DNA of 64,000 bases from positions 1 through 64,000 of the IMG/VR virus record IMGVR_UViG_3300010885_010784; one strand, given 5' to 3'. A model generated the notes under the pieces. It made no database searches. It saw only the letters and a list, made by a program, of their open reading frames with translations, and had not been told where the DNA came from. The DNA comes from a virus. How positions within the stretch are numbered: the stretch's first letter is position 1; each line of letters begins with the position of its first letter. Positions 1,223 to 13,005 of the stretch are shown in pieces. The position numbers were made by a program, and so were the translations under genes.

Positions 1223-1246
1223 AATGTCGGTGGTAGGGCTTATAAT
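1223..1246 (+). promoter_or_regulatory. Left-arm family promoter
   Basis: A full consensus copy: AATGTCGGTGGT, 18-base phase to TATAAT, then AGAACTAT. Here a TTGATA hexamer also lies 17 bases upstream of the -10, so this copy could use both elements. Confidence 0.85.
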
Positions 1247-1270
1247 AGAACTATGAACAAGGGAGACCAA

Positions 1271-1477
1271 ATGAACGAACTAGAAACCGAACTCTATGAC
1301 CTTATGGCACAGGCAGAAGCCGAAGGCTTGAAGGGCAGTAGCACAGACGAAAACGCTGACCCTAGAATGGAACGCATTGGCAACATTCTTACCCTGCTAG
1401 AAGTTTTCCATTGGGAAGACTACAAGCGTATTGTAATTGCTAAGTTCAATGTCCCTGCTGACCACTTTGAAGACTAA
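1271..1477 (+). CDS. 68-residue acidic protein, unknown function
   Basis: The start at 1271 follows a good Shine-Dalgarno (AAGGGAGA). The in-frame ATG at 1253 is exactly six bases after the -10 box, so a leaderless start is also possible. The protein is acidic (MNELETELYDLMAQAEAEG...) with a predicted helical C-terminal half. No domain is recognised. It is followed by a gene with its own strong Shine-Dalgarno. Confidence 0.65.
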   Translation: MNELETELYDLMAQAEAEGLKGSSTDENADPRMERIGNILTLLEVFHWEDYKRIVIAKFNVPADHFED

Positions 1478-1487
1478 GGAGAACCAC

Positions 1488-1631
1488 ATGGAGATTTTTC
1501 TCGCTATCAACCAGACTACTGGCTACATGGAAATGATTTTTGACAATGAGCCTGATGCTCTTGCCTGGACTAATGACCAGACTGCTAAAACTGGCGATGC
1601 CTATTCTATTGAGTGTGAAGACGCTTGCTAG
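1488..1631 (+). CDS. 47-residue small protein
   Basis: ATG 1488 follows AAGGAGAA with good spacing. The product begins MEIFLAINQTTGYMEMIFDN and ends in a Cys-containing ECEDAC. It shares the operon with the gene ending at 1477. Function is unknown. Confidence 0.6.
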   Translation: MEIFLAINQTTGYMEMIFDNEPDALAWTNDQTAKTGDAYSIECEDAC

Positions 1632-1642
1632 AATTTTTGCGC

Positions 1643-1656
1643 CCCGAAATTTCGGG
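1643..1656 (+). other. Perfect 14-bp palindrome in the intergenic cassette
   Basis: CCCGAAATTTCGGG follows TTTTTGCGC after the stop of the preceding gene. Because the T-run precedes the palindrome it is not a classical + strand terminator. It may be a terminator for the other strand or a protein site. Confidence 0.4.
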
Positions 1657-1671
1657 CGTGTCGTGCGGTTC

Positions 1672-1695
1672 AATGTCGGTGGTAGGGGTTATAAT
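1672..1695 (+). promoter_or_regulatory. Left-arm family promoter
   Basis: AATGTCGGTGGT with the 18-base phase to TATAAT. It drives the zinc-ribbon gene at 1720 with a short leader that contains AAGAAAGGA. Confidence 0.8.
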
Positions 1696-1719
1696 GGAAG
1701 TATCAAGAAAGGAAAACGA

Positions 1720-1875
1720 ATGAAAACTATTTGCGTATTTTGTATGAATGTCTATTCTGCTGACGCTTATGCTTGCTACCCTTGTAAAGAATACAAAGGT
1801 ATAATGCCACTAAACAAAGAAACACTAATCTATCTAGGCGAAGACCTAGACGAGTGGGCTGACTACCTAGACTAA
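1720..1875 (+). CDS. 51-residue zinc-ribbon protein
   Basis: ATG 1720 follows AAAGGAAAA. The protein has CVFC near residue 5 and CYPC near 19 (with a further Cys), a typical short zinc ribbon, and an acidic tail. It is monocistronic: its stop overlaps the next promoter. Function is unknown. Confidence 0.65.
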   Translation: MKTICVFCMNVYSADAYACYPCKEYKGIMPLNKETLIYLGEDLDEWADYLD

Positions 1876-1898
1876 ATGTCGGTGGTTGCCTGTATAAT
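1875..1898 (+). promoter_or_regulatory. Left-arm family promoter
   Basis: AATGTCGGTGGT with the fixed 18-base phase to TATAAT. It begins on the last base of the preceding stop codon. Confidence 0.8.
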
Positions 1899-1927
1899 AA
1901 TAACCTAACAAGATAAGGAAAAACGAA

Positions 1928-2125
1928 ATGGAAAACAGATACACTTTTAGCGGTTTCACTTTTGGAAACGACAAACTTTTTCAGTTGCTAATAAATGTAA
2001 AAAACTATTCTGCTATTGGAACTAGCACAAGCCTAGAACTAGGTTTGGAACTAACAGAGAGCGAACGCTTGGAACTAATCAAGGTTCTAATCAACGCTAA
2101 CGATAACGAAAGTGAAGGTATCTAA
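1928..2125 (+). CDS. 65-residue protein, unknown function
   Basis: The start follows AAGGAAAAACG. The N-terminal half looks beta-rich (YTFSGFTFGNDKLFQLLI), followed by a helix (LTESERLELIKVLINA). No domain is recognised. It is the first gene of a three-gene unit that ends at the terminator at 2468. Confidence 0.65.
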   Translation: MENRYTFSGFTFGNDKLFQLLINVKNYSAIGTSTSLELGLELTESERLELIKVLINANDNESEGI

Positions 2126-2127
2126 TA

Positions 2128-2328
2128 ATGATGACCCGAAAAGACTATGTTGAAACTGCTCGCATTCTTGCTGGCGTTCGTGAGAGTATTCTCTCGCTAG
2201 GCGTGGAAGGTGAAGACATCTTCGCTAACCTTGTTGCTGACTTTGCTGAAATGTTTGAGAATGATAACGAGAGATTTCAGGCAGAGCGTTTTGATAACGC
2301 TTGCTGGGAAGAAGTAGAGAATGACTAA
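2128..2328 (+). CDS. 66-residue acidic helical protein
   Basis: It lies two bases after the preceding stop. Two adjacent ATGs (2128, 2131) are possible starts. The protein is helical and acidic at the C-terminus (ACWEEVEND). The last eight bases overlap the next, out-of-frame membrane gene. Function is unknown. Confidence 0.65.
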   Translation: MMTRKDYVETARILAGVRESILSLGVEGEDIFANLVADFAEMFENDNERFQAERFDNACWEEVEND

Positions 2329-2464
2329 TGGATTTATTTTTGTCGCTATTGGTTGCGTTCTTGTTATTGGTGCTTGGAGTATTTTTATCGCAATAGCGTT
2401 AGATAAATCTTTGGCAGAAGTCAAAAGACTAAAACAGGAACTAAAAGACCTAATCCCATTTTAG
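2321..2464 (+). CDS. 47-residue single-pass membrane protein
   Basis: ATG 2321 lies inside the end of the preceding gene. An N-terminal hydrophobic helix (about residues 4-26, FIFVAIGCVLVIGAWSIF) is followed by a charged helical tail (DKSLAEVKRLKQELKDL). This is the layout of small phage membrane-anchored coiled-coil proteins. It is immediately followed by a terminator. Function is unknown. Confidence 0.6.
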   Translation: MTNGFIFVAIGCVLVIGAWSIFIAIALDKSLAEVKRLKQELKDLIPF

Positions 2465-2467
2465 AAG

Positions 2468-2493
2468 TGGGGGGCGAAAGCCCTCCATTTTTT
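2468..2493 (+). terminator. Strong rho-independent terminator
   Basis: TGGGGGGC pairs with GCCCTCCA around a GAAA tetraloop and is followed by six T residues and the conserved CGGCGCACC tail. Confidence 0.9.
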
Positions 2494-2554
2494 CGGCGCA
2501 CCCAAATGTAACAGTTTGGTAACAATGGCTAAAAACACTATCTATCCTAACTAA

Positions 2555-2578
2555 AATGTCAGTGGTAGGGCTTATAAT
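2555..2578 (+). promoter_or_regulatory. Left-arm family promoter
   Basis: AATGTCAGTGGT with the 18-base phase to TATAAT, then AGAACTAT. Transcription would begin just before the structured leader at 2591. Confidence 0.85.
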
Positions 2579-2590
2579 AGAACTATCAGC

Positions 2591-2655
2591 AGGAGAGAGA
2601 AAGAGCCTAGCAAATAATCCCGAAAGGGTGAGCCTAGCAAATAAATCTCTCTCCT
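2591..2655 (+). promoter_or_regulatory. Structured 5' leader with tandem direct repeats
   Basis: AGGAGAGAGA (2591-2600) pairs perfectly with TCTCTCTCCT (2646-2655), closing a 65-nt domain. Inside is a CCC-GAAA-GGG hairpin (2619-2628) flanked on both sides by the same 15-nt repeat beginning GAGCCTAGC (2603-2617 and 2630-2644). The result is an almost symmetrical internal loop in the 5' leader of the gene at 2689. The fold also sequesters a Shine-Dalgarno-like AGGAGAG. Confidence 0.65.
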
Positions 2656-2688
2656 AATGAGAAACTTCAAACTAAGAAAGGGCTACCA

Positions 2689-2835
2689 ATGCCATTACCA
2701 AGAAATCCAAAAAACAGATACACCCTATTTGAATACTCAATGAACGGCAACCTAGTTGTGTCTGCCATTCACTACTACGACATTTTTACATTCTTAGCAG
2801 AACACCCTGACGCTAAGGTAAAGGCTACTAAGTAG
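2689..2835 (+). CDS. 48-residue protein behind a structured leader
   Basis: ATG 2689 follows AAGAAAGGG. The product starts MPLPRNPKNRYTLFEY and includes an aromatic stretch (HYYDIFTFLAEH). No family is recognised. It is the only gene in this arm with a roughly 100-nt, clearly folded leader, so it may be post-transcriptionally controlled. The DnaA-box cluster starts right after its stop. Confidence 0.6.
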   Translation: MPLPRNPKNRYTLFEYSMNGNLVVSAIHYYDIFTFLAEHPDAKVKATK

Positions 2836-2868
2836 TTATACACAGAGTTATTCACACCCTGTGGATAA
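2836..2868. other. Cluster of three DnaA boxes
   Basis: TTATACACA (2836-2844), TTATTCACA (2848-2856) and TGTGGATAA (2860-2868, reverse orientation of TTATCCACA) all match the bacterial DnaA-box consensus TTWTNCACA and are packed into 33 bp between two genes. This suggests host DnaA binding, either for replication or for titration. Confidence 0.7.
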
Positions 2869-2920
2869 CTTTTCTGCGCCCCCGAAACCGTTATCATTCC
2901 GTTATCAAATGTTCTTGTAT

Positions 2921-2944
2921 AATGTCAGTGGGTCTTGGTATACT
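2921..2944 (+). promoter_or_regulatory. Left-arm family promoter (TATACT)
   Basis: AATGTCAGTGGG with the fixed phase to TATACT. A CCCCGAAGAAAGG leader follows. Confidence 0.7.
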
Positions 2945-2974
2945 TATTTTTATCAACCCCGAAGAAAGGCTACT

Positions 2975-3127
2975 ATGCTACTATCAGAAGACACCCACGA
3001 GCCAAACGACTATGACAATGACGGCTATGCCCTAGCCTCTGCTGGTTTTGGAACTGACGAGGACTACGGCTACTACCCCGAAGACGACTGGGGAACAGTT
3101 GAGTCCGAACTATTTGGGGACTGCTAA
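2975..3127 (+). CDS. 50-residue very acidic protein
   Basis: ATG 2975 follows GAAAGG. The product is extremely rich in Asp, Glu, Tyr and Gly (DEDYGYYPEDDWGTVE), with a C-terminal Cys. Small acidic phage proteins often mimic DNA or bind host proteins, but there is no specific match here. The stop lies in the loop of the following terminator. Confidence 0.65.
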   Translation: MLLSEDTHEPNDYDNDGYALASAGFGTDEDYGYYPEDDWGTVESELFGDC

Positions 3128-3147
3128 CGCAGCCCCAGATTTTTTGC
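3116..3147 (+). terminator. Terminator with the stop codon in its loop
   Basis: GGGGACTGC pairs with GCAGCCCC (one bulge) around a TAAC loop containing the upstream stop codon. AGATTTTTT and GCGCC follow. Confidence 0.85.
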
Positions 3148-3231
3148 GCCGCCCAGCCCAGGCGAAATCATTTACGAATAGTCTAAACTTTTTCCCCGAT
3201 TTAAGAAGTCTAATTATTTTTTCCCAGATTC

Positions 3232-3255
3232 AATGTCGGTGGTAGGGTGTATAAT
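3232..3255 (+). promoter_or_regulatory. Left-arm family promoter, leaderless type
   Basis: AATGTCGGTGGT with the 18-base phase to TATAAT. The ATG at 3262 lies six bases after the -10, so the start codon is the expected 5' end of the mRNA. Confidence 0.85.
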
Positions 3256-3261
3256 CTAACT

Positions 3262-3432
3262 ATGAAGAAAAGAAAGCCACCACTAAATAAGATTGCTCAG
3301 GCAACTCGCAACGCACACTCAGCGGAGTTATTCCGTTCTCTAATGCTGAACAAGCACTTAGTCATTACCCCTGAAACTCGCAAGGGTAGCCGTCAAGCAA
3401 ACATTCGCAAGGCTATCAAGGAGAGTTACTAA
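3262..3432 (+). CDS. 56-residue basic protein, leaderless
   Basis: MKKRKPPLNKIAQATRNAH... is strongly basic and helical, which suits nucleic-acid binding. The start is set by the promoter: the upstream in-frame ATG at 3247 lies before the -10, and no Shine-Dalgarno-linked start exists downstream. The stop couples by TAATG to a zinc-ribbon gene. Confidence 0.65.
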   Translation: MKKRKPPLNKIAQATRNAHSAELFRSLMLNKHLVITPETRKGSRQANIRKAIKESY

Positions 3433-3569
3433 TGAACAAACCAACATCAACGTGTTGCAATGCAGAATACTTATGGCTAACCTGTGACGAATGCGATGAA
3501 TCTGTGAACGATGGTGAAGGACACGACTTCGCCACCTGTTCTGAATGCGGTCAAGACGTAGACGACTAA
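3432..3569 (+). CDS. 45-residue zinc-ribbon protein
   Basis: It has three Cys groups: CC near residue 8, CDEC at 18-21 and CSEC at 36-39, with an acidic tail. The two CxxC knuckles are spaced as in a rubredoxin-like zinc ribbon. Coupled by TAATG to the basic protein before it, so the two may act together. The stop overlaps the next promoter. Confidence 0.65.
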   Translation: MNKPTSTCCNAEYLWLTCDECDESVNDGEGHDFATCSECGQDVDD

Positions 3570-3593
3570 AATGTCTGTGGCTCACGCTATAAT
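3570..3593 (+). promoter_or_regulatory. Left-arm family promoter
   Basis: AATGTCTGTGGC with the 18-base phase to TATAAT. AAGAAAGAGAAG follows before ATG 3619. Confidence 0.75.
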
Positions 3594-3618
3594 GTAACTA
3601 CCCTAAAGAAAGAGAAGA

Positions 3619-4104
3619 ATGAACACTATCAACAAGCAAACCGTTTCTGTAACTACCGACTGCCTATGCGGTGAAGGCGATACCGATTACCTTACCGAAT
3701 ACTGCTCTGGCGAATGCTATGAATGGCAGAAGGAAGATGTCTTCGCACTACTAGGCGAATGGCAACTGCTAAACAATGTAGATGAAGACGACACTATCCG
3801 TATCAACGCTAGTAGTGTTGGTTGGCAAGGCAGGAGCGGATACAAGGACACCGACATTCTTGAACTTCACGGAGCGTTATCTCTAAATGGCGACTTCAAG
3901 ATTGACTGGTATCTGGAAGGCAACGAACTAACCGCTAGGCGTTGGAGCCACGATGAACCTGTTGGCACTGGTATCTTCACCTTTGACATTCTAAAAGGTT
4001 GCGACAAGTGTGGAGACCTTATCCAAAAAGACATACACGCTGAAGAGTTGGGTATGTGTATTGAATGCTCTAACGCTTACTTCAATCACGAAGACGAAGA
4101 GTAA
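3619..4104 (+). CDS. 161-residue protein with terminal Cys clusters
   Basis: The N-terminus carries CLC and CSGEC. The C-terminus carries CDKCG and CIEC about 23 residues apart, consistent with a zinc ribbon. The middle (residues about 50-120) is beta-rich (LELHGALSLNGDFKIDWYLEGNE-type strands). No family is recognised. It is monocistronic, between its own promoter and a strong terminator. Confidence 0.75.
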   Translation: MNTINKQTVSVTTDCLCGEGDTDYLTEYCSGECYEWQKEDVFALLGEWQLLNNVDEDDTIRINASSVGWQGRSGYKDTDILELHGALSLNGDFKIDWYLEGNELTARRWSHDEPVGTGIFTFDILKGCDKCGDLIQKDIHAEELGMCIECSNAYFNHEDEE

Positions 4105-4111
4105 CAAGATA

Positions 4112-4141
4112 GTCTGTCTGGCTTAGTGCCAGCAGATTTTT
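4112..4141 (+). terminator. Rho-independent terminator
   Basis: TCTG(T)CTGGC pairs with GCCAGCAGA around TTAGT, followed by TTTTTGCGC. Confidence 0.85.
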
Positions 4142-4165
4142 GCGCAGATTTTTGCTGCCACTATA

Positions 4166-4189
4166 AATGTCAGTGGCTACCTGTATAAT
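4166..4189 (+). promoter_or_regulatory. Left-arm family promoter
   Basis: AATGTCAGTGGC with the 18-base phase to TATAAT, 24 bases before the gene at 4213. Confidence 0.8.
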
Positions 4190-4212
4190 AGACCTATAAA
4201 GAAAGAAGACTA

Positions 4213-4932
4213 ATGCCCCTAATCCGTTCAAAAGATAGAAAAGTTGCTAACGCTGTAAATAAGGCTGGCAACCAAGCAAGTATGGCTAATGCGTTTGGTT
4301 TGCCTAGCGGTAAAGCATTCTCCTGCCCTGGAGCAACAAGTGTGTGTGAGACTATTTGTTATGCTGGCAGACTAGAAAAGGTGTTCAAGGGTATTCGTGA
4401 TGTAATCACTAGCAACTATGAGCAACTACTAGCAACTGATAAGGCTGGTATGATTGCCCTACTTGACGAGATGATTACTGATTTTGTTGCTGAATGCGAA
4501 AAGCGTAATGCCGAAAAGTTATTCCGTATCCACTGGGACGGAGATTTCTTTAGTGAAGATTATACTTATGCGTGGCGTGAAGTAATCCTAATGAACCCTG
4601 ATGTTCAGTTTTGGGCTTATACCAGAAGTGATTTTGCTGTGCCTATTCTTATTGACTTGCCTAATCTAGGTTTTTATTTCTCTGCCGATAGTGCTAACAA
4701 AACTTTAGCGTGGCAGTTGAAGAAGCAGTATGGTATCAAGTTAGCGTATCTTGCTAAAGATTTTGCTACTGGTAAAAGTGATTTCAATGAGCAACAGGAT
4801 AAGTCTGCCGTTCCTTGCCCTGAAAATAACAAGAAGGTAAAAATGATTTCTACCGCTGGCTCTGCCTGTGTTGTTTGCTCTCAATGTATTTTTGCTCGCA
4901 ATGACATTCTATTCTCTGCGAGTAAAAAGTGA
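4213..4932 (+). CDS. Gp88-like phage protein with a CPGAT..C..C motif
   Basis: This 239-residue protein has an N-terminal SCPGATSVCETICYAG motif (about residues 35-50, C-x6-C-x3-C) and a C-terminal CVVCSQC cluster. The IHWDGDFF and FWAYTRSD segments are well conserved in the actinophage 'gene product 88' family as I remember it. The Cys layout suggests a metal or Fe-S site, but no enzymatic role has been established. The start follows AAAGAAAGAAG. A tiny membrane peptide gene follows. Confidence 0.75.
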   Translation: MPLIRSKDRKVANAVNKAGNQASMANAFGLPSGKAFSCPGATSVCETICYAGRLEKVFKGIRDVITSNYEQLLATDKAGMIALLDEMITDFVAECEKRNAEKLFRIHWDGDFFSEDYTYAWREVILMNPDVQFWAYTRSDFAVPILIDLPNLGFYFSADSANKTLAWQLKKQYGIKLAYLAKDFATGKSDFNEQQDKSAVPCPENNKKVKMISTAGSACVVCSQCIFARNDILFSASKK

Positions 4933-4941
4933 GAGGATACT

Positions 4942-5010
4942 ATGGAAAACTGTTTGTTCGTAACTGGAGTAATCGTAATCGGAATACTCATCGTCTTTCT
5001 CATCCAATAG
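4942..5010 (+). CDS. 22-residue membrane micropeptide
   Basis: ATG 4942 follows GAGAGGA at good spacing. Almost the whole peptide after MENC is one hydrophobic helix (FVTGVIVIGILIVFLIQ). The clean ribosome site and position directly after the Gp88-like gene support it. It is too short to assign a function. Confidence 0.5.
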   Translation: MENCLFVTGVIVIGILIVFLIQ

Positions 5011-5046
5011 GGTGAGAAATTCTGCGCAAAAAATCCAGGCAGGTAT

Positions 5047-5070
5047 AATGTCGGTGGTAGGGGTTATAAT
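5047..5070 (+). promoter_or_regulatory. Left-arm family promoter
   Basis: AATGTCGGTGGT with the 18-base phase to TATAAT. An AAGAAGGAAA Shine-Dalgarno follows. Confidence 0.85.
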
Positions 5071-5101
5071 AGAGTTACGAAAGAAAGAAGGAAACCCCCG
5101 A

Positions 5102-5197
5102 ATGTTTGATAATGTAATCAACGAAGAAGCAATAGCAAAACTAACAGACGAACAGGCAGAAGCCTTACTCGCCATTCTAGAGAAAGCAGGATACTAA
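5102..5197 (+). CDS. 31-residue acidic helical peptide
   Basis: The start at 5102 lies downstream of the promoter and behind AAGAAGGAAA. The longer frame reading from 5012 would begin upstream of the promoter. The peptide (MFDNVINEEAIAKLTDEQ...) is one predicted helix. It is coupled by TAATG to the next gene. Confidence 0.55.
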   Translation: MFDNVINEEAIAKLTDEQAEALLAILEKAGY

Positions 5198-5325
5198 TGG
5201 AAACCCTAGACATCTTAGTTGATGAAATGCGTAAGGCAGAGCAAGTAGTAAAAGACGAATACTCTTCTGGCTACTTTGACGGATTAGCAATGGCAGTATC
5301 TATTTTGGAAGGACTAACTGACTAA
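5197..5325 (+). CDS. 42-residue acidic helical protein
   Basis: Coupled by TAATG at both ends. The sequence METLDILVDEMRKAEQVVKD... resembles small actinophage proteins with an 'EYSSGYFDGLAMAVSIL' type tail, where a short linker joins two helices. Function is unknown. Confidence 0.6.
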   Translation: METLDILVDEMRKAEQVVKDEYSSGYFDGLAMAVSILEGLTD

Positions 5326-5618
5326 TGATTGAATACGAAAACACTATTAAGGAAGACCTTATGTATTTCGCTGGCGATGGCAGTTACGGAGATGCTAGTG
5401 ATTTGGTGATTGTCAATGTTCAAGAACTAGACGGACACTTTGGAGATTTCCTTGATGAAGTGAATGAATGGCAACGACCAGACTTTATGCGTTGGTACAT
5501 AGATAATCAAGGTCACGACCAATACCCACACACCTATACTGCTTGCCAAGTTTGTGAACATTGGAACGAGGGCATGACCGAAGACGAGATTATAGAAATG
5601 CTAGACGCTGACGAGTAA
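5325..5618 (+). CDS. 97-residue acidic protein, unknown function
   Basis: It completes a three-gene TAATG-coupled unit. It is acidic and aromatic with one CQVC pair and His residues in the C-terminal half (HTYTACQVCEHW), possibly a metal site. No family is recognised. The next promoter overlaps its stop. Confidence 0.65.
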   Translation: MIEYENTIKEDLMYFAGDGSYGDASDLVIVNVQELDGHFGDFLDEVNEWQRPDFMRWYIDNQGHDQYPHTYTACQVCEHWNEGMTEDEIIEMLDADE

Positions 5619-5642
5619 AATGTCGGTGGTTGGTTGTATAAT
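5619..5642 (+). promoter_or_regulatory. Left-arm family promoter
   Basis: AATGTCGGTGGT with the 18-base phase to TATAAT, then AGAACTAC. Confidence 0.85.
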
Positions 5643-5668
5643 AGAACTACTAAGAAAGAGAGAGATAA

Positions 5669-6220
5669 ATGGGAACTAGACACCTTATTACTGCCTTTGA
5701 CGAACAAGGCGAACTAAAGATTGCTCAATACGGACAATGGGACGGCTACCCTTCGGGGCAGGGCGTTACTGTATTGGCTTGGTTGCGAATGACTACCAGA
5801 ATAAACTATGACGGTAAACTACTTAGCCCTGTTCTAAATGGAATGAAGAGAACTAAGTTTGGAACTGATGAAGAGATTGAAAATCTTTACAGCAAGTATC
5901 CACAGATGAACTATGTTGGAACAGAAGACGAAGAGTATTTTAGTCTTCACTACCCTAACCTAACCAGAGATACAGGAGCAGACATTCTTGGAGTGGTTGC
6001 TTATTCTGTTGGTGATGTGTTGCTGGTAGACAACAGCGACTTTGCCAATGACGAACTGATGTGTGAAGGTATCTATTCTGTAAACTACCAGAGCGAATAC
6101 TTCACTAGCATTTGGAGTGGAGTAACTGTTACATTCCCACTTAGAGAGTTGCCAACAAACGAAGAGTATGTTGAAGCGTTCAGGGTTGCTCTTGAAGAGA
6201 AACGGAAGGCTAGGGCTTAG
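5669..6220 (+). CDS. Conserved phage protein with the GQWDGYPSGQG motif
   Basis: The N-terminus MGTRHLITAF...AQYGQWDGYPSGQG is a hallmark of a widespread phage and plasmid family of unknown function (from memory). The protein is 183 residues, with a beta-rich N-terminal half and a C-terminal helix. The start follows AGAAAGAGAGAG. Its TAG stop lies in the loop of the terminator that follows. Confidence 0.8.
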   Translation: MGTRHLITAFDEQGELKIAQYGQWDGYPSGQGVTVLAWLRMTTRINYDGKLLSPVLNGMKRTKFGTDEEIENLYSKYPQMNYVGTEDEEYFSLHYPNLTRDTGADILGVVAYSVGDVLLVDNSDFANDELMCEGIYSVNYQSEYFTSIWSGVTVTFPLRELPTNEEYVEAFRVALEEKRKARA

Positions 6221-6233
6221 GCTCTAGTTTTTT
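6210..6233 (+). terminator. Terminator with the stop codon in its loop
   Basis: CTAGGGC pairs with GCTCTAG around TTAG, which holds the stop codon. Six T residues and GCGC follow. Confidence 0.8.
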
Positions 6234-6256
6234 GCGCAAAAATCCAGGCTAAGATA

Positions 6257-6280
6257 AATGTCAGTGGTCCCCTGTATAAT
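6257..6280 (+). promoter_or_regulatory. Left-arm family promoter, leaderless type
   Basis: AATGTCAGTGGT with the 18-base phase to TATAAT. AGAACT separates the -10 from ATG 6287. Confidence 0.85.
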
Positions 6281-6286
6281 AGAACT

Positions 6287-6412
6287 ATGAAAGATGAACA
6301 AGCAGAAGAAATCCTAGAAGCATTACAAGACTACTACGCAAATCCCCAAGACTACAGCATTACGGACTTGGAAGAAATTTTCCAAGATAGAGACCCATTC
6401 GAGTTTCTATAA
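6287..6412 (+). CDS. 41-residue acidic protein, leaderless
   Basis: The ATG is six bases downstream of the -10 box with no Shine-Dalgarno possible, so the mRNA probably starts at the initiation codon. The product is acidic and helical (MKDEQAEEILEALQDYY...DLEEIFQDRDPFEFL). The stop codon overlaps the AATGTC of the next promoter. Function is unknown. Confidence 0.6.
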   Translation: MKDEQAEEILEALQDYYANPQDYSITDLEEIFQDRDPFEFL

Positions 6413-6434
6413 TGTCGGTGGTATCCCTTATAAT
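6411..6434 (+). promoter_or_regulatory. Left-arm family promoter
   Basis: AATGTCGGTGGT with the 18-base phase to TATAAT, overlapping the preceding stop codon by two bases. Confidence 0.85.
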
Positions 6435-6461
6435 AGAACTACACAAACAAGAAAGAAGAAA

Positions 6462-6944
6462 ATGGAAAACGAAAACCAGACCCCAGAAATCCTAGAAATC
6501 ACAGGCGACCTAGTAGCAGTATCAAGCGAACACCCTGTATTGCTACACTACAAAAAGCAGATTGAAGACTTACAGGCACAGGTAGAGCGAACCAATACTC
6601 TCGTTGCCGATAAAGACGCTACTATCTACCGCTTGCGTGATAAGTATCGCACAGCAGAATACAAGTTAGAAGAAGTCCTAAAAGGCTTGCTTGATGATGA
6701 AGAGATTGAGTTAGAACACGCTAAGACCATTGCGGAAATCTTTGACGGCATTACACTAACTAAGCAGATTACCATTCAATACGACATTACTGCTACCGCC
6801 ACTTTGGAAGTGCCTTATGGTGCTGACGCTGATGATGTTGCGAGTTCTTGTTATGTTGAGCGTGTTGAGTTCTACACCGACTTTGAAGATGCCGAAGTCT
6901 TGGAGAGCGAACACGACACTAATGATTGGCGTGATGTGTCTTAG
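6462..6944 (+). CDS. 160-residue coiled-coil protein, unknown function
   Basis: Residues about 30-65 form a predicted coiled coil (YKKQIEDLQAQVERTNTL...). The C-terminal half is an acidic beta/alpha region (IQYDITATATLEVPYGADADDV) that resembles the 'sensory' domain seen in several small phage proteins here. The start follows AAGAAAGAAGA. It is monocistronic, followed by a structured, gene-free stretch. Confidence 0.7.
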   Translation: MENENQTPEILEITGDLVAVSSEHPVLLHYKKQIEDLQAQVERTNTLVADKDATIYRLRDKYRTAEYKLEEVLKGLLDDEEIELEHAKTIAEIFDGITLTKQITIQYDITATATLEVPYGADADDVASSCYVERVEFYTDFEDAEVLESEHDTNDWRDVS

Positions 6945-7180
6945 AGTTCCCTTTCTTTCTCTAAGACTAACCTGAGCAAGTTATAAAACTGCTCACCTTT
7001 ACAAGCCAGTAGCGATTGTCTGCAGATGTGTCGGCTCTGGTTCTCTGTGTGGAGATTCACACGGCGTTGGTAGTGAGGGCGATAGTTGCGAGACTACGCT
7101 GAAACACGAAAAACTACCGCTTCAAATTTCTGCGCCCCGAAATGTTACAGTTGTGTTACGAAATGGCATTTGCTATTTAC
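6945..7180 (+). other. Gene-free structured 3' region, possible ncRNA
   Basis: No convincing ORF is present. The stretch holds the CCTGAG/CTGCTCAC hairpin (6971-6997), a GTGTG-GAGATT-CACAC hairpin near 7050, and paired segments TAGT...ACTA further on. It ends in a TGCGCCCCGAAATG tail. It may be a 3' UTR-derived RNA. The fold is judged by eye only. Confidence 0.35.
6971..6997 (+). repeat. CCTGAG...CTGCTCAC 3'-UTR element, copy 1
   Basis: TGAGC and AGTT pair with AACT and GCTCA in the same hairpin. It lies 26 bases after the stop of the upstream gene. Three further copies (7552, 8141, 9411) occupy the same post-stop position. Confidence 0.6.
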
Positions 7181-7204
7181 AATGTCCGTGGCTACCTGTA
7201 TAAT
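7181..7204 (+). promoter_or_regulatory. Left-arm family promoter with TTTACA
   Basis: TTTACA sits 17 bases from TATAAT and overlaps AATGTCCGTGGC. No start codon follows within 150 bases, so this promoter would make a long leader that reads into the next promoter and the gene at 7375. Confidence 0.75.
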
Positions 7205-7282
7205 AGATACATACAGCAAGACAGCAATAAGAAGCAAGACAAAAATCATTTACGAAGTGGAAAAAAATTTCCCAGAAAATGC

Positions 7283-7311
7283 TTGACTTATGAGTTGTCT
7301 TCCTGTATAAT
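7283..7311 (+). promoter_or_regulatory. Canonical sigma-70 promoter
   Basis: TTGACT, a 17-base spacer and TATAAT. The spacer retains only a remnant of the family motif. It is the second of two tandem promoters for the gene at 7375. Confidence 0.8.
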
Positions 7312-7374
7312 AGAAGTATCAACAAAAGTTGGTATAAAACAGCAACACAACCCTTCGGGAGAAAAGAGATACAA

Positions 7375-7536
7375 ATGCCAGAAATCAAGGTAGGCGACCG
7401 CTACGAGACCAAGACTAACAAGTTTGTTGGTGTCGTTCAGGAAATCGCACAGAACAAGAACGGCTCATTCCGTGTTCGTTTGGACATTGACGGAAAAGCA
7501 CACTGGACTTCGGCTCAGGGAACTGTCCTAGCCTAA
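7375..7536 (+). CDS. 53-residue small beta-rich protein
   Basis: ATG 7375 follows GGGAGAAAAGAG. The sequence (MPEIKVGDRYETKTNKFVGVVQEI...GSFRVRLDIDGKAHWTS) looks like a small SH3- or KOW-like beta barrel. It is served by two tandem promoters, which suggests high or staged expression. The function is not recognised. Confidence 0.65.
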   Translation: MPEIKVGDRYETKTNKFVGVVQEIAQNKNGSFRVRLDIDGKAHWTSAQGTVLA

Positions 7537-7551
7537 ATCTTATAAGGCAGA

Positions 7552-7584
7552 CCTGAGTATGTCTGGCAAAATAACTGCTCACCC
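7552..7584 (+). repeat. CCTGAG...CTGCTCAC 3'-UTR element, copy 2
   Basis: TGAG and CTCA arms are conserved with a longer loop. It begins 15 bases after the stop of the gene at 7375. Confidence 0.5.
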
Positions 7585-7593
7585 CAAAAACTA

Positions 7594-7617
7594 AATGTCG
7601 GTGGTCTCCGCTATAAT
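7594..7617 (+). promoter_or_regulatory. Left-arm family promoter
   Basis: AATGTCGGTGGT with the 18-base phase to TATAAT. It drives the gene at 7665 with a leader of about 45 bases. Confidence 0.8.
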
Positions 7618-7664
7618 AGACCTTGTAAGAAACAAAACCCTACTAACAAAGAAAAGAGATAACT

Positions 7665-8117
7665 ATGGCAAGAGCCATTTCAGTAAAAATCCCAACAGGC
7701 AAAGTCATTGAGATGATTGAGCAGAAGATTACTCAAATCAACGAAGACATTGCTACCTACCCTGCTCGCAAGGCACAATACAAGGCAGACCTAGAAGCCT
7801 ACACCCAATCGGTTGTTCGTCTTCTAACTGACCTGCTAAACACTCGGGGAACTGAGTTGCTTTCTAACGAAGACAGCAACGAGAACATTCGTGTTAGCAC
7901 CAACTACAACAACTCTGTGGAAATCACAATCGGTAGAGAACTAACTGCCGAGTTGGTAAAGCCAAAAGAGCCAGAGAACCCAGAGCCAAACGGCTACTAT
8001 GGTCGTGTCTATGGTTCTAAAAAGGCAGAGTTGGAAAAGACACTCAAACTACTTCGTATGAGTGAGCAGGAAACAATCACTTCGTCTGCTTACAACAGCG
8101 TTTTGGAACTGCTGTAA
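7665..8117 (+). CDS. 150-residue helical protein, unknown function
   Basis: An N-terminal coiled-coil-like half (residues 1-60; KVIEMIEQKITQINEDIATYPARKAQYKAD-type spacing) is followed by a beta segment and a C-terminal helix. It resembles small actinophage structural-accessory proteins, but no family is assigned. The start follows AAAGAAAAGAGATAACT. The CCTGAG element and a strong terminator follow. Confidence 0.7.
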   Translation: MARAISVKIPTGKVIEMIEQKITQINEDIATYPARKAQYKADLEAYTQSVVRLLTDLLNTRGTELLSNEDSNENIRVSTNYNNSVEITIGRELTAELVKPKEPENPEPNGYYGRVYGSKKAELEKTLKLLRMSEQETITSSAYNSVLELL

Positions 8118-8140
8118 AACCATAGGCTTACGCCTAAACA

Positions 8141-8166
8141 CCTGAGCAAGTGTCTAAACTGCTTCC
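8141..8166 (+). repeat. CCTGAG...CTGCTTCC 3'-UTR element, copy 3
   Basis: The same element 24 bases after a stop codon, preceded by a small TAGGC/GCCTA hairpin. The 3' arm is slightly changed (GCTTCC). Confidence 0.5.
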
Positions 8167-8207
8167 TGAATTGGGGTAGCGACTAGACAGGTAAAATAAT
8201 TTCGCTA

Positions 8208-8238
8208 ATCTTCCTGTCTTCGGGCAGGGAGATTTTTT
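8208..8238 (+). terminator. Very strong terminator with a TTCG tetraloop
   Basis: An 11-bp stem (ATCTTCCTGTC with GGCAGGGAGAT, two G-T pairs) is closed by TTCG and followed by six T residues and GCGC. Confidence 0.95.
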
Positions 8239-8306
8239 GCGCAAAAATCCTGCGCCCCGATTTATAACAGTTTAGTTACGAACCCTATTTATTTTTGCCT
8301 AGACTA

Positions 8307-8335
8307 TTTACAATGTCGGTGGGTAGGTGTATAAT
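8307..8335 (+). promoter_or_regulatory. Left-arm family promoter with TTTACA
   Basis: TTTACA, 17 bases and TATAAT, with AATGTCGGTGGG filling the spacer. Confidence 0.85.
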
Positions 8336-8375
8336 AGGACTATCAACAAAAAACTACTAATGAAAGGTGTGTCTT

Positions 8376-9395
8376 ATGGCTCACGAACTAGAAATAAATA
8401 ACGAAACAGGCGAAGCGTCTTTTGCTTCTCTACGCCAACCTGCTTGGCACAAACTCGGCACTGTGTTTGAAGAAGAAGTAAATACCGCAGAAATGCTAAA
8501 ACTGGCAAAACTAGACGGCTGGAATGTTCGTCTTGAAGATGTCGCAATCCCTACTGGTTTTGAGAGCGACAAGTCTTACTCGTTCGTATCTCGCACCAAT
8601 CCATTCAACGCAGACCAGACAGACATTCTTGGTGTCGTTGGTGAGCGTTATGTTCCATTACAGAATGAAGACTTGTTCTCGTTTGGTGATAACCTGCTAG
8701 ACGGCGGTGGTCGCTGGGAGACTGCTGGCTCTATCAAGGGTGGTCGTCAAGTGTTCGGCTCTATCGCATTGCGAGACGGCATTACACTAGACCCTAATGG
8801 TCGTGCCGATAAGATTGATAACTATCTTCTAATCAACACTTCTCACGACGGCTCTATCGCTATTCAGGCAAGTATCACGCCTGTTCGTGTTGTGTGTGCT
8901 AACACTCTCAACCTTGCTCTATCTTCATTCAAGGGTAAGTCTGCTTCTAAGCAGTCATTCAAAATCCGCCACACTTCAACTGCCGAAGGTAAAATCGCAG
9001 TTGCTCGTGAAGCGTTAGGTTTGGCTTCTAAGTATCTTGATGAGTTTTCTGTTATGGCTAACGCTATGATTGAAAAGGAAATCACTAAGGCTGACTTTGA
9101 TAAGATTGTCGCTCTTGCTTACCCTGCCCCTGAAAAAGACAGCAAGGGTTCATTCAAGAAACACGACAGCAAAGTTGATTTGCTAAACGCCATTTATGTC
9201 GGTCAATACAACGACACCATTTCGGGAACTGCTTGGGGAGCATACAACGCTCTAACCGAACGCCTAGACTGGTATCGCTCGGCTCGTGGTGGTTCAAACG
9301 AGAGCATTTACGCAAGTGCTTCTGGCTTTGACCCTGTGATGAACGCAGAGAAGAACCGCCTAATGAAGATTGTTCAATCAGTCGTAATGGCTTAG
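8376..9395 (+). CDS. DUF932 (phage/plasmid-like TIGR03299) protein
   Basis: This 339-residue protein matches DUF932 by its landmark segments: N-terminal PAWHKLG, VGERYVPLQNEDLF near residue 80, and TPVRVVCANTLNLAL near 165. DUF932 proteins are widespread in phages and plasmids, often near replication or anti-restriction genes, but have no proven activity. The ATG at 8376 (AAAGGTG upstream) is preferred over a GTG at 8367. It is monocistronic, with a CCTGAG element and tRNA-Glu just downstream. Confidence 0.85.
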   Translation: MAHELEINNETGEASFASLRQPAWHKLGTVFEEEVNTAEMLKLAKLDGWNVRLEDVAIPTGFESDKSYSFVSRTNPFNADQTDILGVVGERYVPLQNEDLFSFGDNLLDGGGRWETAGSIKGGRQVFGSIALRDGITLDPNGRADKIDNYLLINTSHDGSIAIQASITPVRVVCANTLNLALSSFKGKSASKQSFKIRHTSTAEGKIAVAREALGLASKYLDEFSVMANAMIEKEITKADFDKIVALAYPAPEKDSKGSFKKHDSKVDLLNAIYVGQYNDTISGTAWGAYNALTERLDWYRSARGGSNESIYASASGFDPVMNAEKNRLMKIVQSVVMA

Positions 9396-9410
9396 TCCAT
9401 TCCAAATAAT

Positions 9411-9436
9411 CCTGAGTAAGATTTCAAACTGCTCAC
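9411..9436 (+). repeat. CCTGAG...CTGCTCAC 3'-UTR element, copy 4
   Basis: TGAGTA and TGCTCA arms flank a short loop 16 bases after a stop codon and end two bases before the tRNA-Glu gene. It could act as an RNA-processing signal there. Confidence 0.55.
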
Positions 9437-9438
9437 TT

Positions 9439-9513
9439 GCTCCCATAGTTTAGTGGTTAGAACGCCAGGTTTTCATCCTGGTGGCGAGAGTTCGATTCTC
9501 TCTGGGAGTGCCA
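9439..9513 (+). tRNA. tRNA-Glu (anticodon TTC)
   Basis: A full cloverleaf is visible. The acceptor GCTCCCA pairs with TGGGAGT (one G-T pair). The anticodon arm CCAGG/CCTGG encloses TTTTCAT (anticodon TTC). The T arm GAGAG/CTCTC encloses TTCGATT. CCA is encoded at 9511-9513. Confidence 0.95.
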
Positions 9514-9605
9514 AATTTTTGCGCAAATTTTCGCCATCATTAATAGCCATGCTAACTATAATAATCTAATTACGAACACCAAAATCTTTTCCCCGAAATT
9601 GCCTA

Positions 9606-9634
9606 TTTACAATGTCGTAGGTATCCTGTATAAT
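9606..9634 (+). promoter_or_regulatory. Left-arm family promoter with TTTACA
   Basis: TTTACA, 17 bases and TATAAT, with AATGTCGTAGGT in the spacer. An AGAGAAAGAG Shine-Dalgarno follows. Confidence 0.8.
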
Positions 9635-9664
9635 AGATACTATAACCCAAGAGAAAGAGATACA

Positions 9665-10096
9665 ATGACAGACTATCCTGACCGCTATTCACTACGCACC
9701 AAAGGCACTATCGTTCACTTGATAGATGTTGAGAAGGCTACTGCTCTAATCAAACAGCGTTTCAACAATCAAGACGCAGACATTACCGCCGAAAGAATGG
9801 CAATCGTAAATGGCAAGAATGGTCTTGCTACTGTTCTTGACGAAGGCGTTGGCTGGTTCGCAGACAAGGACGGCAAGTTGCCTATTAACTATTGGGGCAA
9901 GAATGGAAACAACGGCTACCTAGACATCACCGTTGAAGAGTTGTATCCACTAATCAGTGATGAAACTATTGACCTTGCTGACCATGTTCGTATCTTTGGC
10001 GACCGCCTAGAAACAAACCTATCCACTTGGCAATACTACGCCAAAGGCTATCCACAGGACAAGATGTCGGTGGTTCCTGCTACAATGGTATCCTAA
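9665..10096 (+). CDS. 143-residue protein, unknown function
   Basis: The start MTDYPDRYSL at 9665 follows AGAGAAAGAG. The longer frame from 9599 would begin upstream of the promoter. The protein mixes short strands and helices, with no recognised motif. An internal promoter copy lies in its last 35 bases and drives the next gene. Confidence 0.65.
   Translation: MTDYPDRYSLRTKGTIVHLIDVEKATALIKQRFNNQDADITAERMAIVNGKNGLATVLDEGVGWFADKDGKLPINYWGKNGNNGYLDITVEELYPLISDETIDLADHVRIFGDRLETNLSTWQYYAKGYPQDKMSVVPATMVS
10063..10086 (+). promoter_or_regulatory. Left-arm family promoter inside a coding end (TACAAT)
   Basis: ATGTCGGTGGT with the 18-base phase to TACAAT, lying within the last codons of the upstream gene. 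Confidence 0.65.
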
Positions 10097-10114
10097 CAGA
10101 AAGAGACAAACCCT

Positions 10115-10342
10115 ATGAAAAAATACTATGTAAAAGTCCAAGTCAATTATGACGGAGACATTGAAGCAAACTCACCAGAAGAAGCCGAAGAACTTGCTTG
10201 GCATTCTTATTATGGCGACAACGCTACTCTAATCTACGACAGCGTTGAGAGCATTGATGTAGAAGAGTATGACCACTGCGAAGAGTGCGACAATCCAGAA
10301 GACGAATGCGAATGCGAAGAAGAAGAGAGTGAAGACGAATGA
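10115..10342 (+). CDS. 75-residue acidic protein with CxxC pairs
   Basis: The N-terminal half (YYVKVQVNYDGDIEANSPEEAEELAW) is a small ferredoxin-like repeat unit also seen in the gene at 11573, so the two look paralogous. The C-terminus is Glu/Asp/Cys-rich (CEECDNPEDECECEEE), which suggests metal binding. It overlaps the next gene by four bases (ATGA). Confidence 0.7.
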   Translation: MKKYYVKVQVNYDGDIEANSPEEAEELAWHSYYGDNATLIYDSVESIDVEEYDHCEECDNPEDECECEEEESEDE

Positions 10343-10494
10343 CCCAACTTGAAAGCCTAAAAGCAGAACGCAAAGCCATTGAAAACGATTTCAAGAAGTT
10401 TGATGGCAGACTAAATGATTGGACGCACGACCTTTTGTTGAGCCGTATGGAAATGCTAGATAGTATGATTAGCATTGAAGAATACAATGCCTAA
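10339..10494 (+). CDS. 51-residue helical protein
   Basis: ATGA overlap with the preceding gene. A charged helical protein (MTQLESLKAERKAIENDFKKF...) that looks like a short helical hairpin. Unknown function, but its context (operon of five small genes) is clear. Confidence 0.6.
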   Translation: MTQLESLKAERKAIENDFKKFDGRLNDWTHDLLLSRMEMLDSMISIEEYNA

Positions 10495-10505
10495 AAAGGA
10501 GAAAT

Positions 10506-10571
10506 GTGAACACACTTTCATTTGTGATTATTGCATCAATTGTGGTGCTTATTATATTTCTTATGCAGTAA
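10506..10571 (+). CDS. 21-residue membrane micropeptide (GTG start)
   Basis: A GTG start follows AAAAGGAG. The peptide is a single hydrophobic helix (NTLSFVIIASIVVLIIFLMQ). The ATG at 10504 is out of frame and stops at once. The strong ribosome site is the main support. Confidence 0.45.
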   Translation: MNTLSFVIIASIVVLIIFLMQ

Positions 10572-10581
10572 AGGAGCAGCA

Positions 10582-10821
10582 ATGACTAGAACATTTAGAG
10601 CACAGATTACATGGGACTTTGAGTTTGAGGAAGATGGCTACACCGAGAGTGAGCGTGAGTATCTTGAAGAACAACTTGACGAAGGAGAGACCCTTGAACC
10701 ACGCACGGAAGAGCAAATGATAAACTATGCTCATAGTGAACTACTGGATGCATTGTATAACAGTATAAAGTACAATGACCTTTATCAAATGATAGATGTA
10801 GTGGAAGTAAATGAAAAGTAA
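10582..10821 (+). CDS. 79-residue acidic protein
   Basis: ATG 10582 follows AAAGGAGCAGCA. It begins MTRTFRAQITWDFEFEEDGY, a beta strand, then an acidic helical region (YTESEREYLEEQLDEGETLE). This resembles short phage proteins of the 10115/11573 type. It overlaps the next gene by 11 bases. Function is unknown. Confidence 0.65.
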   Translation: MTRTFRAQITWDFEFEEDGYTESEREYLEEQLDEGETLEPRTEEQMINYAHSELLDALYNSIKYNDLYQMIDVVEVNEK

Positions 10822-10948
10822 TAAAGAAACTATCTTGGAACTCATTGATTCATTCATGGAGATTCCAGATGTGGACAGCCTTCCTACAACGACTATTCTA
10901 AATTTGTTGAGGCTAAGAATTGTTGACCCTTACTTCTTTCAGGAGTAG
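10811..10948 (+). CDS. 45-residue helical protein
   Basis: It starts inside the end of the preceding gene. MKSNKETILELIDSFMEIPDVDSL... is predicted helical. Last gene of this operon. The next 130 bases hold only a TGCGCC tail, a TTACGAA element and the next promoter. Confidence 0.55.
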   Translation: MKSNKETILELIDSFMEIPDVDSLPTTTILNLLRLRIVDPYFFQE

Positions 10949-11046
10949 GGCTTCAATTTCTGCGCCGCAAAACATTATGTCAAGTAACCATGCTAAACAT
11001 CAGAACCCGATTACGAAGAGGTAAAAATTTCCCCAGGTTTTGGGTA

Positions 11047-11075
11047 TTTACAATGTCAGTGGTATCGGTTATAAT
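11047..11075 (+). promoter_or_regulatory. Left-arm family promoter with TTTACA, leaderless type
   Basis: TTTACA, 17 bases and TATAAT, with AATGTCAGTGGT in the spacer. AGGTAC separates the -10 from ATG 11082. Confidence 0.85.
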
Positions 11076-11081
11076 AGGTAC

Positions 11082-11312
11082 ATGACAATAAAATATGTAG
11101 AAAAATCAACAAGAGTATCTGATGTATCGTACTGGGATGAATTGTATCATTCTGATGTGGCTACCGTTTACGAAGCCTCTAACTACCGTGACTACTACCG
11201 AGTAAAGACTAGTAAGACTACTAAGTATTTCAAAGGTGAGAGTGCTTGGTCTGCCGTGCAACGCTATGTTGTAGACGCAGGTGACTTTGGTGGCTGGGGT
11301 ATCTTCCGATGA
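11082..11312 (+). CDS. 76-residue aromatic-rich protein, leaderless
   Basis: The ATG lies six bases after TATAAT with no room for a Shine-Dalgarno. The protein is Tyr/Trp/Lys-rich (YHSDVATVYEASNYRDYYRVKTSKTTKYF). No family is recognised. Its last four bases overlap the next ATG (ATGA). Confidence 0.65.
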   Translation: MTIKYVEKSTRVSDVSYWDELYHSDVATVYEASNYRDYYRVKTSKTTKYFKGESAWSAVQRYVVDAGDFGGWGIFR

Positions 11313-11527
11313 ACATCAATCCTAAAGCAATTAGTGATACAACTATCCCTATCCACGACTTAGTACATGGTGAGTTGAAGAGCCTTATACTTGCAGCAGA
11401 AGAGCAAGTGGAAGCGTCGGATGAAGACCTTGCTAACTATTGGAATGGAAGGTTAGACGCATATGCTGAATTATATAAACTAATATATGATTTGATATTT
11501 ATGCGAGAAGACCTTGACAAACAGTAA
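11309..11527 (+). CDS. 72-residue helical protein
   Basis: ATGA coupled. It is helical and acidic (HDLVHGELKSLILAAEEQVEASDEDL...). This resembles small phage proteins with a 'YWNGRLDAYAELYKLI' helix. Its last codons encode the -35 box of the next promoter. Confidence 0.65.
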   Translation: MNINPKAISDTTIPIHDLVHGELKSLILAAEEQVEASDEDLANYWNGRLDAYAELYKLIYDLIFMREDLDKQ

Positions 11528-11542
11528 CCCATACTGTATAAT
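11514..11542 (+). promoter_or_regulatory. Canonical sigma-70 promoter
   Basis: TTGACA, a 17-base spacer and TATAAT, lacking the TGTCGGTGG motif. One of few consensus -35 promoters in this arm. Confidence 0.85.
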
Positions 11543-11572
11543 TGATATATAACCCTTAGAGAAAGAGAATCA

Positions 11573-11779
11573 ATGGCAACATTTGATGTAACCCTATCCT
11601 TTCACTTTGATACCGAGTATCAGGTAGAAGCAGATAGTTATGAAGAAGCAGAAGAAAAAGCAATGGCAATGGGTCAAGAGTGGAAACCTTATTCATCTGA
11701 ATTAGGATATACTCACGACTGGTATTCAGTAGACATTGAAAACTGTTTTACTAACGATGAGTTGGATGAAGATGAGTGA
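11573..11779 (+). CDS. 68-residue acidic protein, paralogue of the 10115 gene
   Basis: MATFDVTLSFHFDTEYQVEADSYEEAEEKA matches the strand-linker-helix pattern of the 10115 product (V.A.S.EEAEE.A). Small ferredoxin-like folds of this type are common in phages without known function. The start follows AGAGAAAGAGAATCA. It overlaps the next gene by eight bases. Confidence 0.7.
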   Translation: MATFDVTLSFHFDTEYQVEADSYEEAEEKAMAMGQEWKPYSSELGYTHDWYSVDIENCFTNDELDEDE

Positions 11780-11945
11780 GTGCGACTGCGAGAAGGTTGT
11801 TTGTCCTAAACATCATGGAGCATTTGATTGCACACCCTTCTGTGACATTTGTGAAGGTAACACAGAATACTGCACTACCCACGATGAATGGGAAGCAGAA
11901 CAAGCAAAGACTTATCTAGCACAGTATGGAGAAACATATGAGTGA
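11772..11945 (+). CDS. 57-residue Cys-rich zinc-finger-like protein
   Basis: Cys/His pairs (CDCEKVVCPKHH, CTPFCDIC, YCTTHDEW) could bind one or two Zn ions. The start overlaps the upstream stop (ATGAGTGA). The end overlaps the next gene. Probably a nucleic-acid or protein adaptor, by analogy only. Confidence 0.65.
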   Translation: MSECDCEKVVCPKHHGAFDCTPFCDICEGNTEYCTTHDEWEAEQAKTYLAQYGETYE

Positions 11946-12177
11946 TTTCGTTACTGAAAAAGAATTCGATGATGCCATAGACCTTCTATATTCATTCGTT
12001 GATAAGTTTGTTAATGATGATTCAGAAGACTTCTCTATGCAACTAACAGAACTAACTAATCTAGCATACATGCAGGGATGGCATAAAGCCATTGACATGG
12101 TATTAGATGTCAGTGGTAACATGTATAATGGATTCGATAGCCCAACCCTACAAGAACTGGAGCAACGCATTGTCTAG
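11938..12177 (+). CDS. 79-residue helical protein
   Basis: ATG 11938 follows GGAGAAA. An in-frame ATG at 11926 has no ribosome site. The acidic helical protein ends in YNGFDSPTLQELEQRIV. A family promoter copy lies within its 3' end. Function is unknown. Confidence 0.65.
   Translation: MSDFVTEKEFDDAIDLLYSFVDKFVNDDSEDFSMQLTELTNLAYMQGWHKAIDMVLDVSGNMYNGFDSPTLQELEQRIV
12106..12129 (+). promoter_or_regulatory. Left-arm family promoter inside a coding region
   Basis: GATGTCAGTGGT with the 18-base phase to TATAAT, in the last 70 bases of the upstream gene and ahead of the gene at 12179. Confidence 0.65.
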
Positions 12178-12178
12178 T

Positions 12179-12903: not shown

Positions 12904-12926
12904 GTTAGGGGTTTCCGAGTCCGTCA

Positions 12927-12966
12927 CCGTGGGGAAGGTAGGTAGATTGCTACTTGCTTTCCCCAC
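12927..12966 (+). terminator. Possible terminator hairpin
   Basis: GTGGGGAA pairs with TTCCCCAC, with a TAG/CTA inner pair and a long loop. The following T-run is short (TTTT), so termination would be weak. Confidence 0.45.
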
Positions 12967-12976
12967 AACATTTTGG

Positions 12977-12982: not shown

Positions 12983-13005
12983 AGAACATAAGAGAATAGA
13001 GAAAA

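What the first reader, a model, noticed from the sequence alone, without database searches (positions are those of the whole stretch)
2591..2655. Symmetric RNA leader with tandem 15-nt repeats
A perfect 10-bp closing stem, a CCC-GAAA-GGG hairpin at the centre and identical 15-nt repeats on both sides make a near-symmetrical internal loop in front of a 48-residue gene. None of the other operons has it. It is not a riboswitch I can name; two identical single-stranded arms suggest a dimeric protein or a pairing partner.
Basis: seen in the sequence. Interest (0 to 1): 0.7.

Follow-up and report, generated by a model that had tools for sequence, protein, structure and literature searches.

The report
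New phage leader RNA family
The hairpin is one copy of a widespread, previously undescribed RNA element that sits at the start of operons in uncultured actinobacterial phages; it is built from a repeated internal-loop unit kept unchanged while the surrounding stems covary, so it is probably a control site in the early mRNA.

Summary
The 65-nt hairpin (2591-2655) occurs once in this phage but belongs to a family found in hundreds of IMG/VR phage contigs. It is absent from Rfam and from the annotated phage collection, and no real copy turned up in GTDB genomes. The unit is not a 15-nt repeat but an internal loop, 5'-UGAGC-3'/5'-CAAAUAA-3'. Here two such loops lie back to back around a 4-5 bp helix. 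The repeats look identical because that helix is the palindrome CUAG. Relatives use CUAC/GUAG, CUUAG/CUAAG and others (183 of 188 fully paired). All three helices covary strongly, while the loops are nearly invariant. The loop also occurs singly, in triplets and nested in one orientation, so a symmetric dimer site is not required. Elements sit downstream of a promoter and upstream of same-strand genes (184:6). The following genes are unrelated small ORFs, and one gene family occurs with or without the element, so it marks operon leaders rather than one gene. The best mechanistic guess, untested, is a cis-acting leader that acts on the transcription complex (put/nut-like). Protein-mediated translation or stability control is nearly as likely. 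The host is inferred to be actinobacterial.

The parts
2557..2578 (+). promoter-like site TGTCAGTGG-N7-TATAAT; TATAAT at 2573-2578, so transcription should start a few bases before the hairpin
   Evidence: exact match to the pattern shared by 22 sites in the window (0.44 expected); transcription start inferred
2591..2655 (+). the whole element: hairpin with two back-to-back internal-loop modules
   Evidence: fold z -3.3; CM R1 match 69.7 bits, E 7e-19 (the window copy was among the 56 training sequences)
2591..2600 (+). outer stem, 5' strand (pairs with 2646-2655)
   Evidence: outer-stem covariation in family
2601..2606 (+). module 1 (outer), 5' strand: R-U-GAGC of the consensus; here A-A-GAGC
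   Evidence: GAGC invariant in 122 distinct relatives
2607..2610 (+). central helix, 5' strand CUAG (pairs with 2634-2637)
   Evidence: 183 of 188 unique relatives pair fully here, many by compensatory changes
2611..2618 (+). module 2 (inner), 3'-type strand CAAAUAA-N
   Evidence: near-invariant in family
2619..2628 (+). inner hairpin CCC-GAAA-GGG
   Evidence: inner stem covaries
2629..2633 (+). module 2 (inner), 5'-type strand UGAGC
   Evidence: near-invariant in family
2634..2637 (+). central helix, 3' strand CUAG
2638..2645 (+). module 1 (outer), 3'-type strand CAAAUAA-N
   Evidence: near-invariant in family
2646..2655 (+). outer stem, 3' strand
2675..2682 (+). probable ribosome-binding site AGAAAGGG, outside the hairpin and not sequestered by it
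   Evidence: read from sequence
2689..2835 (+). 48-aa ORF of unknown function; homologues follow elements in L171 and L238
   Evidence: no Pfam or PHROG match

Best explanation
It is a member of an undescribed family of cis-acting structured RNA leaders carried by a group of actinobacterial phages. Shown: one hairpin that carries 1-3 copies of a near-invariant internal loop (UGAGC/CAAAUAA, bounded by an A.G, G.A, Watson-Crick or G.U pair) between stems that covary freely; promoter-proximal position; same-strand operon downstream; 1-3 copies per phage contig, sometimes on two divergent operons. Inferred: it acts as RNA; the loops are a recognition motif for a protein complex; and because the element goes with the operon start rather than with any one gene and leaves the ribosome-binding site free, it most likely acts on the transcription complex (put/nut-like anti-pausing or antitermination) to ensure expression of early operons.
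For: Covariation score 0.574 versus 0.139 shuffled and at most 0.129 with slid partners on 56 sequences; 0.680 versus 0.146 on 122 sequences. Central stem fully paired in 183 of 188 unique regex matches, in 11 sequence types. Outer stem of 4 bp or more in 74%, versus 9% when flanks of different elements are mixed. Loop bases invariant or nearly so. 443 module hairpins versus 0-2 for five permuted loops, on loci that were fetched with the motif. Promoter-like signal within 75 nt upstream in 142 of 185, versus 85 of 447 control places. Downstream 1.2 kb coding on the same strand 184:6, upstream 90:99. Downstream genes fall into more than 20 unrelated groups plus singletons. Of 35 homologues of one downstream gene, fetched by protein only, 12 have the element directly upstream, 2 have it one gene further up and 21 lack it there. 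Divergent placement in about 10 of 43 contigs, as with HK022 putL/putR downstream of PL and PR (PMC9378689).
Against: No transcript, protein partner or antitermination activity was tested. Put RNA has two stem-loops, this has one. In 95 of 226 cases a second promoter-like site lies between element and gene, so part of the mRNA would lack the element. One element lies between two genes of an apparent operon (L238). G.U pairs are rare (22 of 1534 paired cells), unusual for an RNA family. Only 3 of 9 terminase relatives of 50 kb or more carry it, so it is not essential in the lineage.
Confidence: 0.4

Rival explanations
1. Post-transcriptional operator: a phage or host RNA-binding protein recognises the UGAGC/CAAAUAA loops in the leader and controls translation or decay of the early mRNA.
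For: Loop conservation with free stems is typical of a protein site; 1-3 modules per hairpin in variable orientation fits avidity; when no second promoter intervenes the element ends a median 59 nt before the start codon; one element lies between two genes, directly upstream of the second.
Against: Not tied to one gene family; the ribosome-binding site is not sequestered; most elements have an A/U-rich 5' leader (TAAATA in 202 of 233), so simple 5'-end protection is unlikely.
Confidence: 0.35
2. DNA-level hairpin or cruciform element near a replication origin or control region.
For: G.U pairs are rare; DnaA boxes TTATCCACA are about tenfold enriched in the 500 nt upstream, and three DnaA-like boxes lie 180 nt downstream in the window (2836-2868).
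Against: Strict orientation relative to the following genes and a promoter just upstream; several elements on one strand before different operons in one contig; some G.U exchanges do occur.
Confidence: 0.1
3. Ligand-binding riboswitch.
For: Near-invariant internal loops resemble an aptamer core.
Against: No terminator or RBS-sequestering platform seen between element and gene; downstream genes share no pathway; the module repeats freely and occurs singly.
Confidence: 0.06
4. Separate small RNA made from the upstream promoter, for example a decoy for a host factor.
For: In 95 of 226 cases a second promoter-like site follows the element and could drive the gene on its own.
Against: No intrinsic terminator was seen right after the element; the others run straight into the gene; position is fixed to operon starts.
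Confidence: 0.08

Closest known systems
HK022 put RNA (polymerase-utilization leader)
   Same: about 70-nt structured RNA downstream of early phage promoters, one copy on each of two divergent operons, independent of the genes that follow (PMC9378689)
   Different: put has two stem-loops with a triplex; this is a single hairpin with repeated UGAGC/CAAAUAA internal loops; no sequence relation known; activity untested
Lambda nut sites with N protein
   Same: promoter-proximal RNA sites on divergent early operons (established knowledge)
   Different: no boxA or boxB recognised by eye; no N-like protein identified here
Kink-turn and related protein-binding internal loops
   Same: a recurrent internal loop with an A.G or G.A pair at its edge, embedded in unrelated helices
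   Different: no tandem G.A/A.G on both strands: the 3' strand CAAAUAA has no G; not in Rfam
manA and wcaG RNA motifs of cyanophages
   Same: structured leaders in environmental phages (PMC2864571)
   Different: wcaG RNAs precede exopolysaccharide or light-induced genes; both motifs belong to a published set; no Rfam match here

Membership tests
Any Rfam 15 family | match at or above the curated gathering score | tested here: not met
   only tRNAs in window and 17 loci; permissive searches of three places gave only chance-level matches far below the curated scores
This element family (model R1) | two UGAGC/CAAAUAA loops around a paired centre with outer and inner stems | tested here: met
   window 2595-2651, 69.7 bits; the window copy was in the training set, and its first loop has A for the U of UGAGC
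HK022 put RNA | located in the leader of early operons, downstream of the promoter | tested here: met
   142 of 185 with promoter-like signal within 75 nt; 184:6 same-strand genes downstream; that these operons are early is inferred
HK022 put RNA | two adjacent stem-loops | tested here: not met
   a single hairpin with internal loops; so not filed as put
HK022 put RNA | binds RNA polymerase and suppresses pausing and termination | not testable with these tools
   needs transcription assays
Riboswitch | expression platform (terminator or sequestered RBS) between aptamer and gene | tested here: inconclusive
   none seen on reading the leaders; no systematic alternative-fold search was made
Riboswitch | a coherent set of regulated genes | tested here: not met
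   unrelated small downstream genes
Kink-turn | tandem sheared G.A pairs across the loop after a 3-nt bulge | tested here: not met
   3' strand CAAAUAA has no G in most members

The most novel reading that the evidence does not exclude
A new class of RNA-based transcription modifier (put-like in logic, unrelated in structure) built from a reusable UGAGC/CAAAUAA internal-loop module, through which a widespread group of uncultured actinobacterial phages controls the host polymerase on early operons.
Probability: 0.35. Interest if true: 0.85.

Novelty: new variant of a known kind. Interest (0 to 1): 0.72.

Why it matters
Hundreds of phage contigs share a strongly covarying RNA whose recognition loops have hardly changed, yet it is absent from Rfam, from the annotated phage collection searched and, in its common form, from GTDB genomes. 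It points to a conserved, still unidentified partner in actinobacterial hosts, or one carried by the phages, and gives a precise, mutable motif with which to find it.

Tried and rejected
Rfam at gathering and permissive thresholds: nothing. GTDB scans: none for the exact double repeat; seven contigs for the 4-bp form, nearly all tandem repeats, the rest without complementary centres. Annotated phages by DNA: no real match. Literature search for the sequence: none. Terminase Pfam models on contigs without the window's terminase: no hits, inconclusive because contigs are partial. Single-module model R2 found no further module in the window. The gene-specific regulator idea was weakened. 'Start codon inside each repeat' (RUG of RUGAGC) was considered and rejected: in outer loops that base is often C or U where it can pair with its partner.

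Full report
Observation. The sequence is as described: a 10-bp closing stem 2591-2600/2646-2655, a CCC-GAAA-GGG hairpin at 2619-2628 and two copies of GAGCCTAGCAAATAA at 2603-2617 and 2630-2644. The fold is better than all 200 dinucleotide shuffles (z = -3.3). It is the only copy in the window and in the 70,080-base record.

It is a family. Patterns that fix only the loops (GAGC-n-CAAATAA twice) and leave the stems largely free gave 120 or more, 3 and 90 further stretches. Among 188 unique matches the two central segments pair fully in 183, with 11 sequence types including CUAG/CUAG, CUAC/GUAG, CUUAG/CUAAG, CUAAG/CUUAG, CUAU/AUAG, CUGAG/CUCAG and CUAGG/CCUAG. So the apparent 15-nt direct repeat is two strands of a symmetric arrangement: outer stem, loop, central helix, inverted loop, inner hairpin.

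Covariation. On 56 sequences 87.9% of cells pair versus 59.3% shuffled, with covariation score 0.574 versus 0.139, and slid registers give at most 0.129 (in that set the central stem was required to pair at selection, the other two stems were not). On 122 distinct CM matches the score is 0.680 versus 0.146 (this alignment leans to the model). Loop bases UGAGC and CAAAUAA are invariant or nearly so; the one common exception is G for the first A of the second CAAAUAA (28 of 122). The base before UGAGC and the base after CAAAUAA behave as a pair: A.G, G.A, C-G, U-A, G-U and G-C account for most, with some A.A in the outer loop.

The unit is the internal loop. It also occurs once per hairpin (L081, L155, L243 and others), nested twice in the same orientation (L061, L171, L238), and three times in one hairpin (L037, L047, L067, L080). 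A scan for UGAGC/CAAAUAA flanked by stems finds 443 cases in the fetched loci versus 0-2 for five permuted loops (the loci were fetched with the motif, so this shows structure, not frequency). A model of the single module finds no further copy in the window.

Context. A promoter-like signal lies within 75 nt upstream in 142 of 185 unique elements versus 85 of 447 control places. The 1.2 kb downstream is coding mainly on the same strand in 184 of 190, while upstream genes are split 90:99. The element therefore leads operons. In the window it follows TGTCAGTGG-N7-TATAAT at 2557-2578, with the ribosome-binding site outside the hairpin. Contigs carry 1-3 copies, some on divergent operons 1-2.4 kb apart. 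Downstream genes are small and unrelated. Homologues of the window's 48-aa protein follow elements in L171 and L238, but a protein search for it found only one relative. For the commonest downstream family, 12 of 35 homologues have the element directly upstream and 2 have it one gene further up; the other 21 lack it there. In many relatives a second promoter-like site lies between element and gene (95 of 226), and a CRP-like palindrome (TGTGAN6TCACA, or its core GTGAN6TCAC) forms the inner hairpin or lies just downstream (88 of 188).

Distribution. Not in Rfam or annotated phages. GTDB scans gave no exact double repeat, and for the 4-bp form only tandem repeats and places without complementary centres. 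The window's terminase is related to those of 27 of 43 other contigs searched, nearly all of which carry an element, and to those of Streptomyces phages (54%). WhiB, diagnostic of actinobacteria, is in 25 of 44 contigs including the window's. Only 3 of 9 terminase relatives of 50 kb or more carry the element. Host assignment is inference; phages of the freshwater order Nanopelagicales also carry WhiB (PMC10202952).

Mechanism. Because the element belongs to the operon leader and not to a gene, leaves the ribosome-binding site free and can sit on both divergent operons, I favour action on the transcription complex, as for HK022 put RNA (PMC9378689). Structure differs, so it is not filed as put. 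Control of translation or decay by a bound protein is nearly as likely. A DNA-hairpin role is kept open because G.U pairs are scarce (22 of 1534) and DnaA boxes cluster nearby.

Limits. No expression data, no partner, and relatedness among contigs inflates counts. Many contigs are fragments. 'Early' operon is inferred from small-gene content and position, not from expression.

Noticed in passing
window 1225-13470, + strand: 20 promoter-like sites TGTCNGTGG-N7-TATAAT (up to 2 mismatches) on one strand (22 in the whole window; 0.44 expected), some with a normal -35 17 nt upstream: a shared spacer motif that may bind an activator.
   Followed up: partly
window 2836-2868: Three DnaA-box-like sequences (TTATACACA, TTATTCACA, TGTGGATAA) right after the 48-aa gene, the last two inverted and followed by CTTTT; similar inverted boxes follow the element-led gene in L238. 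Two more boxes at 14344 and 14356.
   Followed up: partly
elements with a 5-bp centre, e.g. L026 10357-10422: The inner hairpin is a CRP/GlxR-like palindrome TGTGAN6TCACA placed upstream of a second promoter; homologous genes without the element keep the palindrome at a similar place.
   Followed up: partly
L244, L272, L286, L126 and others, 3' of the element: A second small hairpin with varying stem (e.g. GTTAGCACAAGGCTAAC) lies between the element and the ribosome-binding site.
   Followed up: no
60 nt upstream of elements in relatives: A/U-rich TAAATA segment in 202 of 233 leaders versus 28 in shuffles; absent in the window copy.
   Followed up: no
window 24755-24928, - strand: WhiB-family gene; also GP88 at 4213-4932, DUF932 at 8367-9395 and a RecA-like gene at 36786-37799.
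   Followed up: no
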